DNA of 64,000 nucleotides. Origin: an uncultured Pseudomonas sp. (lineage in GTDB: Bacteria > Pseudomonadota > Gammaproteobacteria > Pseudomonadales > Pseudomonadaceae). The stretch is from positions 1 to 64,000 of the forward strand of contig NZ_CAJYVE010000019.1 of the NCBI RefSeq assembly GCF_913777995.1, written 5' to 3'. The notes under the pieces are model-generated. The model saw nothing but the letters and a program-made list of their open reading frames with translations. It was not told the DNA's origin and did no database searches. Position 1 is the stretch's first letter; every line of letters starts with the position of its first letter. The translations under genes were made by a program, and so were the position numbers. Positions 7,837 through 31,274 of this stretch are shown piece by piece.

Positions 7837-7881
7837 ACGGGTGTCACCTCGTGCCGGATAGCCACAGGGTGCAGGCGCGCT

Positions 7882-7913
7882 GGCCCGGTGGGACCGGCTT
7901 CAGCCCGGAAGCT
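7882..7913. repeat. Degenerate solo REP palindrome
   Basis: GGCCCGGTGGGACCGGCTT followed by CAGCCCGGAAGC matches, with a few changes, the REP half found inside the mobile elements at 23978 and 30742, including their GGCCCGGTGGGA flank. Confidence 0.6.
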
Positions 7914-23962: not shown

Positions 23963-23977
23963 GGGTGTGTGTTTCAG

Positions 23978-24122
23978 CCAATACTGATCAGTTAGACCGG
24001 GTGGGAGCGGCTTCAGCCGCGAAGCGATCGCATGTTCACAACAGATGCAGTAAGTTTCCTGGCGCTTTCGCGGCTAAAGCCGCTCCCACCGGGCCACATG
24101 CCGCTTAAGCGAACAGTATTGG
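23978..24122. mobile_element. 145-bp non-coding REP-containing element with TIRs and 8-bp target duplication (copy 1)
   Basis: Terminal inverted repeats CCAATACTG (23978-23986) and CAGTATTGG (24114-24122). The element is flanked directly by TGTTTCAG on both sides (23970-23977 and 24123-24130), an 8-bp target-site duplication. Inside are two Pseudomonas REP sequences in opposite orientation (GGTGGGAGCGGCTTCAGCC and its inverse), as in a REPIN. It has no coding capacity. A second copy in opposite orientation is at 30742. Confidence 0.8.
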
Positions 24123-24174
24123 TGTTTCAGTCGATGCTGGCCAGTGAGACCGTCGAAGCGAGCCTGCTGGTAAT

Positions 24175-30293: not shown

Positions 30294-30647
30294 GTGCGCA
30301 AGATGGTAATGATGATGGCGATGCTGGCATTGGCGGCGTGCGATGCCGGAAAGCCCGAGGCTCCGGCCCGTTCCGACACGGCCAATGCGCCAGCGGCGGC
30401 AGCGCCGGTCAGCGAGCCGAAGTGGTACATCCAGATGAATACCCGTGAGGCGGTGAGTGACACCAGCGCTTGGCTGTTGGAACGGCACTACGCACCGACA
30501 ATCGTCAACATCGAAGGCAAGCAGCAGATCATACTCGGCCCCTACGCCACTGAAGCGGAAGGCCAGGCCCAACTCACCGAGCTGCAGGCCAAGGTGGACA
30601 AGTCGCACCGCTTCACCAAGCCGACCCTGGTACATCGCGCACTTTAG
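30294..30647 (+). CDS. SPOR-domain lipoprotein, 117 aa
   Basis: The GTG start at 30294 (AGGAG 9 nt upstream) gives MRKMVMMMAMLALAAC, a lipoprotein signal with lipobox LAAC. After an Ala/Pro linker comes a SPOR-like domain (KWYIQMNTREAVSDTSAWLL with IILGPYATEAEGQAQL), a fold that binds denuded peptidoglycan. Probably an envelope lipoprotein that recognises septal or remodelled wall (family knowledge). The REP-element cluster lies just downstream. Confidence 0.75.
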   Translation: MRKMVMMMAMLALAACDAGKPEAPARSDTANAPAAAAPVSEPKWYIQMNTREAVSDTSAWLLERHYAPTIVNIEGKQQIILGPYATEAEGQAQLTELQAKVDKSHRFTKPTLVHRAL

Positions 30648-30674
30648 GACGTCAGGCCCGGACCGACCGTTCAG

Positions 30675-30936
30675 GTACTGGCTGGAGCGGCCTTGTGTTC
30701 ATGGCAGATGCAGTGAACTTCGGGGCCTCTTCGCGGCTAAACCAATACTGTTCGCTTAAGCGGCATGTGGCCCGGTGGGAGCGGCTTTAGCCGCGAAAGC
30801 GCCAGGAAATGCACTGCATCTGTCATGAACATGCGGTCGCTTCGCGGCTGAAGCCGCTCCTACCCGGTCTAACTGAACTGTATTGCGGCCAAAGCCGCTA
30901 CCTACCGAACGACATGCCGCTTGGCCGAACGGTAGG
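30675..30936. repeat. Degenerate third copy of the REP-containing element, split by copy 2
   Basis: Without the insert and one target duplicate, the flanks join into a diverged version of copy 1 in the same orientation. CAGATGCAGTGAACTT, TTCGCGGCTAAA, GCCGCTACC and ACATGCCGCTTGGCCGAAC line up with the corresponding parts of 23978-24122. Confidence 0.65.
30742..30885. mobile_element. 144-bp REP-containing element (copy 2), inserted into an older copy
   Basis: Nearly identical to the reverse complement of 23978-24122. The left end is CCAATACTG (30742-30750) and the right end CTGTATTG (30878-30885), slightly decayed. Flanks CGGCTAAA (30734-30741) and CGGCCAAA (30886-30893) are a target-site duplication with one mismatch; the target is a REP stem of a degenerate older copy. 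Non-coding. Confidence 0.75.
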
Positions 30937-30956
30937 GCGGCTGAAGCACCCTCCGG

Positions 30957-31274
30957 TCAGCGACGGCCCAGCAGCAGGCCGACCACCAGGCCGAATCCGG
31001 CGGAGACCGCCACGGTCTGCCAAGGATGGCCGCCGATGTAGGTCTCGGTGGCTTCGACCACCGGGCGGGTACGCTCACGTACGCTGGTCACTGCATCCAG
31101 GGCCTGGGTGAGCTTCTGGCCCAGTTGTGCCTTGAGGGTCTCGGCGTCTTCGCCTACCAGCGATGCGCTGTCCTTGAGGAGTTTTTCCGATTCTTCGATA
31201 AGCGCCTGCAGTTCGCTGAATGCCTGGTCCTTGATCTGGTCGGCGGTGTTTTGCGCGTTGGTCTTGCGAGCCAT
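30957..31274 (-). CDS. DUF883 (ElaB/YqjD/YgaM-type) ribosome/membrane protein
   Basis: 105 residues. A long amphipathic helical N-terminus (ADQIKDQAFSELQALIEESE and onwards) ends in ETYIGGHPWQTVAVSAGFGLVVGLLLGRR in outline, the family's tail-anchor helix with the GxxxG-rich end. E. coli members bind ribosomes at the inner membrane in stationary phase under RpoS. ATG 31274 has AAGGAA 7 nt upstream. Confidence 0.88.
   Translation of the reverse strand: MARKTNAQNTADQIKDQAFSELQALIEESEKLLKDSASLVGEDAETLKAQLGQKLTQALDAVTSVRERTRPVVEATETYIGGHPWQTVAVSAGFGLVVGLLLGRR

What the first reader, a model, noticed from the sequence alone, without database searches (positions are those of the whole stretch)
30675..30936. 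Nested insertion: a REP-containing element jumped into an older copy of itself
The fresh 144-bp copy (30742-30885) interrupts a diverged copy in the opposite orientation. The joint is marked by CGGCTAAA/CGGCCAAA, an 8-bp duplication with one mismatch. Removing the insert and one duplicate restores a REP stem. This is direct evidence that the whole unit, with ends beyond the REPs, moved as one piece.
Basis: seen in the sequence. Interest (0 to 1): 0.75.

Follow-up and report, generated by a model that had tools for sequence, protein, structure and literature searches.

The report
REP-carrying jumping element that targets REPs
A tiny transposon with no gene of its own carries a pair of the genome's common hairpin repeats (REPs) between its ends, prefers to land in those same repeats, and here has landed inside an older copy of itself.

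Summary
A 143-bp element (30743-30885) interrupts a diverged, oppositely oriented copy of the same family. The duplication is a damaged 10-bp repeat, not 8 bp. In this Pseudomonas genome 77 distinct copies of 120-160 bp with both ends were collected. 42 of 77 are flanked by 10-bp direct repeats with at most one mismatch; other lengths give almost none. Read by eye, all share one plan: IS4-type inverted ends around a REP doublet (REPIN), with two REP types. In 32 of the 42 clean cases the duplicated target is within two mismatches of the REP core GCTTTAGCCG. A second Pseudomonas species (G149) has such elements and a 1473-bp IS4-group insertion sequence with matching ends in the same kind of site, its reading frame interrupted by one stop: the likely relative of the missing transposase source. 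The window's assembly (92% complete) shows neither an IS4-type transposase nor a RAYT-type gene. So the MITE reading is supported, and the finding goes further: a large REPIN-bearing family spread as cargo of an IS4-type MITE, and that cargo itself offers new landing sites. Transposition in trans and present mobility are untested.

The parts
30743..30885 (+). Young copy of the element, 143 bp, no coding capacity recognised
30743..30760 (+). Left inverted end CAATACTGTTCGCTTAAG
   Evidence: First 19 bases differ at 1 position from the corresponding end of the G149 IS
30867..30885 (-). Right inverted end, read inwards CAATACAGTTCAGTTAGAC
   Evidence: 1 difference of 19 from the other end of the G149 IS
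30774..30797 (+). First REP arm of the cargo REPIN, contains the target core GCTTTAGCCG
   Evidence: whole element folds as a hairpin, z -6.6
30841..30864 (-). Second, inverted REP arm
30734..30742 (.). Left target duplication, damaged (CGGCTAAAC, 9 of 10 bases kept)
   Evidence: Sequence against the 10-bp rule of the family
30886..30895 (.). Right target duplication CGGCCAAAGC
30651..30733 (-). First part of the older, diverged copy in reverse orientation (left limit uncertain, 30641-30651)
30886..30937 (-). Second part of the older copy (aligned to 30934, implied end 30937)
30938..30947 (.). CGGCTGAAGC, possible right target duplication of the older insertion; no left partner recognised
   Evidence: Sequence only
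23979..24121 (-). Second copy in the window, flanked by GTGTTTCAGC (23969-23978) and GTGTTTCAGT (24122-24131), 10 bp with one mismatch, a site that is not the REP core

Best explanation
The unit is a non-autonomous transposable element (MITE) of the IS4 group. Its two ends nearly equal the two ends of a 1.47-kb IS4-group insertion sequence of another Pseudomonas species; the middle is a REPIN, two inverted REPs with a loop. A transposase acting in trans recognised the ends and moved the whole unit, inserting it through a cut staggered by 10 bp with strong preference for the REP core GCTTTAGCCG/CGGCTAAAGC. Because the element carries two such cores and the duplication renews the core at each border, copies pile up inside and beside one another; the window shows one nested event. 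Shown: fixed ends, constant 10-bp duplications, target consensus, nesting and chains, an IS with matching ends in the same kind of site. Inferred: which transposase, action in trans, the staggered cut, and origin by capture of a REPIN between IS4-type ends.
For: 77 copies of 120-160 bp with both ends; 28 of 77 perfect and 42 of 77 at most one mismatch at 10 bp, none perfect at any other length from 6 to 14; 32 of these 42 targets within two mismatches of the REP core, against 0.13% of 20,000 random window 10-mers; 9 of 9 neighbouring collected pairs spaced exactly 10 bp, 6 in opposite orientation, mean identity 0.74 against 0.79 for all pairs, so not tandem duplication; nested copy restored in the window and three further clear cases; G149 elements of the same plan and its IS: ends, REP-core flanks differing at 1 of 10, PF13006, PF01609 and NF033592 hits.
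Against: No transposase with these ends was found in the own assembly: PF01609, PF13006, G149 transposase. The only candidate partner lies in another species and has an in-frame stop. 35 of 77 copies lack a 10-bp repeat within one mismatch. Movement itself was not observed, and no same-species strains were available.
Confidence: 0.85

Rival explanations
1. It is an ordinary REPIN moved by a RAYT tyrosine transposase; the outer sequences are conserved flanks carried by chance.
For: The inner part is a REPIN-like doublet found without these ends in other Pseudomonas genomes, and 11 of 36 further REP loci of the own genome keep no recognisable end. RAYT-type genes are common in the genus: PF01797 in 177 of 199 genomes.
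Against: Conserved inverted ends outside the REPs and constant 10-bp duplications are not expected of this mechanism (PMC2817692 passage: IS200/IS605 members lack terminal inverted repeats and larger duplications). The own assembly has no PF01797 match.
Confidence: 0.05
2. Nesting and chains arose by recombination or gene conversion between repeats, not by insertion.
For: Repeats are abundant (249 REP-arm sites up to 2 mismatches), hybrid copies with arms of both REP types exist, and 35 of 77 copies lack a clean duplication.
Against: Exact 10-bp spacing in 9 of 9 neighbouring pairs, mixed orientation, no excess similarity of neighbours; duplications also at non-REP sites such as 23969-24131.
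Confidence: 0.05
3. It is a MITE, but moved by a transposase of another family that happens to share end sequences with IS4-group elements.
For: No transposase with these ends was found in the own genome.
Against: Each end differs at 1 of 19 bases from the corresponding end of the G149 IS4-group element. The 18-base end is also common in cyanobacteria, in short elements with 10-bp repeats and around IS4-type transposase pieces. Other Pseudomonas IS4-group elements have related ends such as TAATGCTGTTCACTTAAG.
Confidence: 0.05

Closest known systems
IS4-group insertion sequences (G149 element; relatives annotated ISBvi1-like) and their MITEs
   Same: Ends, transposase families of the partner, constant-length duplications
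   Different: Carries a REPIN as cargo and targets the core of that REPIN; no autonomous copy seen in the same genome
REPINs and RAYTs (Bertels and Rainey 2011, PMC3116915, passages)
   Same: Two inverted REPs forming a hairpin, high copy number, intergenic
   Different: IS4-type inverted ends outside the REPs and 10-bp duplications; no RAYT-type gene in the own assembly
ISRm22, IS4 family, inserted in REPs of Sinorhizobium meliloti 10/10 (Tobes and Pareja 2006, PMC1525189, passages)
   Same: IS4-family element entering REPs
   Different: An IS, not a MITE; the passages do not describe REPs inside the element
ISPpu9 and ISPpu10, IS110 family, in P. putida REPs (PMC1525189, passages)
   Same: Specific insertion into Pseudomonas REPs
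   Different: Two-base direct repeats, other family, no REP cargo described in the passages
Coxiella QMITE2 (review PMC10969869, one passage)
   Same: A MITE containing a REP that serves as a landing site for a mobile element
   Different: Entered by IS1111, a different element; no self-targeting described in the passage
REP dimers inside longer palindromes in Anabaena variabilis and others (PMC3733652, section 7)
   Same: REP dimers regularly framed by longer inverted sequences
   Different: No transposase family, target duplication or mobility assigned in the section read

Membership tests
MITE | Short, non-coding, terminal inverted repeats, fixed ends | tested here: met
   77 copies of 120-160 bp with both ends
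MITE | Constant-length target duplication | tested here: met
   10 bp, 42 of 77 at most one mismatch
MITE | Ends shared with an autonomous element | tested here: met
   G149 IS, 1 of 19 differences at each end; but that IS has one in-frame stop
MITE | Autonomous element in the same genome | tested here: not met
   None in the 92%-complete assembly; not a requirement for an ancient or stranded family
MITE | Mobilised in trans | not testable with these tools
   Needs an assay
IS4 group (for the partner IS) | IS4-type transposase domains | tested here: met
   PF13006 79.6 bits and PF01609 65.8 bits over their cut-offs; NF033592 185.6 bits over 115 for the longer piece, 47.1 below it for the shorter
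IS4 group (for the partner IS) | Y-(2)-R-(3)-E-(6)-K signature (recalled, from no call) | tested here: met
   YHERWEVENVFDELK in the translated piece
REPIN | Two inverted REPs forming a hairpin | tested here: met
REPIN | Cognate RAYT in the genome | tested here: not met
   No PF01797 match in the own assembly, 177 of 199 genus genomes have one
REPIN | The REP doublet itself is the mobile unit | tested here: not met
   For these copies the unit with 10-bp duplications extends beyond the REPs
IS110-type REP-entering elements | Two-base direct repeats as reported for ISPpu9 and ISPpu10 | tested here: not met
   10-bp repeats

The most novel reading that the evidence does not exclude
The REP cargo is a portable landing pad. 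By carrying two copies of its own preferred target, and renewing the target at each insertion, the element multiplies safe sites for itself; in a genome that appears to lack RAYTs it has taken over the spread of a REPIN population from the tyrosine transposase to an IS4-type one.
Probability: 0.4. Interest if true: 0.78.

Novelty: new variant of a known kind. Interest (0 to 1): 0.6.

Why it matters
REPINs are mostly discussed as elements moved by RAYTs. Here fixed ends and constant duplications indicate that a large REPIN-bearing family was moved by a different, DDE-type machinery, in a genome where no RAYT-type gene is seen. It also offers a bacterial case of a mobile element that brings along the site it prefers to enter, so that nested and chained copies make self-feeding or self-limiting spread testable.

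Tried and rejected
No match to the element in plasmids or phages at E up to 1e-5. No transposase relative and no exact end pattern in viral contigs. The other two PF01609 loci of G149 (L341, L343) have no such ends. Nine contig starts of the own genome were read for a remnant of the IS; none was recognised. The MAFFT alignment of the intergenic region with nine relatives was too diverged for an exact empty site; only gene-to-gene distances were used, for four of them. Five of nine copies flagged as nested by score are weak on inspection. The blastn search with the G149 IS found only relatives of 60-80% identity in plasmids, one annotated ISBvi1-like. Paper searches that did not show this architecture; only the held open-access library was searched, and the string CAATACTGTTC gave two unrelated papers.

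Full report
Setting. The window is G000:C19:1-64000 of a 4.76-Mb, 54-contig, 92%-complete assembly. CrcZ and PrrF RNAs in the window fit Pseudomonas. The stretch lies between an ORF ending at 30647 on the + strand and one ending at 30957 on the - strand.

The element. The stretch has 40 near-full-length relatives at 85-97% in the own genome besides itself; 40 of 282 first-look candidates were scored. The end motif has 121 sites against 1 in the control, 100 of them listed. I used 30 loci, 30 and 68 stretches around further hits. Pairing ends in a script gave 98 intervals. I kept the 77 of 120-160 bp; the 21 dropped are one of 101 bp, one of 112 bp and 19 of 191-349 bp, many of which span two neighbouring copies. 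Read by eye, all 77 show the plan end, REP, loop, inverted REP, end, some with damaged arms. Split at 78% identity to the window copy, 46 are of one REP type (GAGCGGCTTTAGCCGC) and 31 of the rest, mainly GAGCGAGCTTGCTCGC; a few are hybrids. The closest pairs differ at about 1 of 140 positions, so part of the spread looks fairly recent. As single-stranded DNA the window copy folds into a long hairpin, -41.2 kcal/mol against a shuffled mean of -22.3, z -6.6.

The duplication. Comparing the last d bases on the left with the first d on the right, only d=10 stands out: 28 perfect, 42 with at most one mismatch and 47 with at most two, of 77. Cross-paired flanks give 4.4% perfect matches at d=10; for other d from 6 to 14 there is no perfect match and at most 2 within one mismatch. 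In 32 of the 42 clean cases the 10-mer is within two mismatches of GCTTTAGCCG, against 0.13% of 20,000 random 10-mers of the window. The other window copy, 23979-24121, has GTGTTTCAGC/GTGTTTCAGT, a site that is not the REP core.

Nesting and chains. Rejoining the window flanks yields an older copy in reverse orientation, score 112 against at most 35 in 20 shuffles, about 71% identical to the consensus. A rough sorting of the 77 gives 36 next to another end across the 10-bp core, 9 nested by score, 21 in other REP-core sites and 11 elsewhere. Of the 9, four are clear on inspection, the window copy among them, and five are weak. Nine pairs of collected copies lie within 14 bp of each other; in all nine the spacer is exactly 10 bp, 6 pairs are in opposite and 3 in the same orientation, and neighbours are no more alike (0.74) than all pairs (0.79). 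This fits repeated insertion into a renewed target rather than tandem duplication.

Beyond the own genome. Of 99 genomes of the genus 23, the own included, match the 144-bp query; in the other 22 the listed matches fall within positions 26-128, the REPIN part, with 8 candidates scored per genome. Seven such loci that I read show REP doublets without these ends. The exact end motif occurs in 2 of 398 genomes, the own (44 sites) and G149 (6 sites); diverged ends would be missed. In G149 I read six loci: REP-doublet elements with such ends, two with perfect 10-bp repeats (L092 and L094). G149 also has a 1473-bp element, L342:1184-2656, whose ends each differ at 1 of 19 bases from the corresponding end of the window copy. 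It is flanked by GGGCTAAAGC and CGGCTAAAGC and followed by another end and a REP doublet. Its transposase frame has one stop; the pieces hit PF13006, PF01609 and NF033592. At E up to 1e-40 this transposase is found in 1 of 398 genomes, G149; weaker relatives were not asked for. PF13006 itself is found in 16 of 149 genomes, not in the own; those elements have related ends. The exact 18-mer CAATACTGTTCGGTTAAG is common elsewhere: 80 listed loci of a scan that stopped at its limit, nearly all cyanobacterial, many in short elements with 10-bp repeats, two around IS4-type transposase pieces.

Which machinery is present. The own assembly has no match to PF01609, PF13006, PF01797 or the G149 transposase. 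PF01797 is found in 177 of 199 genus genomes; it covers IS200-type genes as well as RAYTs. At 92% completeness, and since repeated genes are often lost from draft assemblies, these absences are suggestive only.

How general the packaging is. The REP arm GGAGCGGCTTTAGCCGCGAA (up to 2 mismatches) has 249 sites in the own genome, none in the control; 100 were listed. I fetched 36 loci from that list, chosen as not lying in the element loci already held (at least L352 repeats one). By eye about 25 of 36 keep at least one recognisable end and 11 of 36 keep none. Bare REPINs thus exist, but the larger part of this sample sits in the MITE.

Empty sites. In 61 of 115 genomes part of the 1-kb query matched. 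In four relatives with the two flanking genes close together (L312, L315, L316, L332) the space between them is about 47-100 bp, against 309 bp here. They lack both copies; at 77-82% identity of the downstream gene no base-exact empty site can be shown. By the match coordinates a fifth, G020, is also shorter, while G022, G050 and G068 have wider spacing; these four were not analysed further.

Literature. I saw passages of PMC1525189, PMC3116915, PMC2718517, PMC3189936, PMC11708052, PMC10969869, PMC2817692 and PMC3733652, and sections 7 and 16 of the last. Insertion of IS elements into REPs, by an IS4-family IS among others, is known; REPINs and RAYTs are known; a MITE with a REP entered by IS1111 is mentioned for Coxiella; REP dimers within longer palindromes have been noted. 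I found no report of IS4-type ends around a REPIN in the searches listed under Tried and rejected.

Verdict. The element is a REPIN-carrying, REP-targeting IS4-group MITE, a new variant of known kinds. Action in trans and the landing-pad role of the cargo remain inferences.

Noticed in passing
window 24132-24168: Directly after the right duplication of the second copy, CGATGCTGGCCAGTGAGAC resembles a diverged end of the family, so an eroded copy may abut there.
   Followed up: partly
L368, L371, L370, L372, L309 (contig starts C24, C48, C32, C13, C4): REP arms broken at the same point by one shared unrelated sequence near contig starts, probably another REP-entering mobile element of this genome.
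   Followed up: no
L021, L031, L268 (contig starts C22, C1, C17): A different, longer repeat shared by three contig starts runs into the same type of IS4-like end.
   Followed up: no
L253:260-451: A 192-bp composite of a copy plus the tail of another, flanked by a perfect 10-bp repeat GACCTAAACA.
   Followed up: no
L095, L099, L101, L105, L112 (other Pseudomonas genomes): IS4-group elements with TAATGCTGTTCACTTAAG ends sit in short palindromic sites with repeats of about 11-13 bp.
   Followed up: no
window 7881-7912: A REP-like palindrome matching the family arms on both strands, without recognised ends.
   Followed up: no
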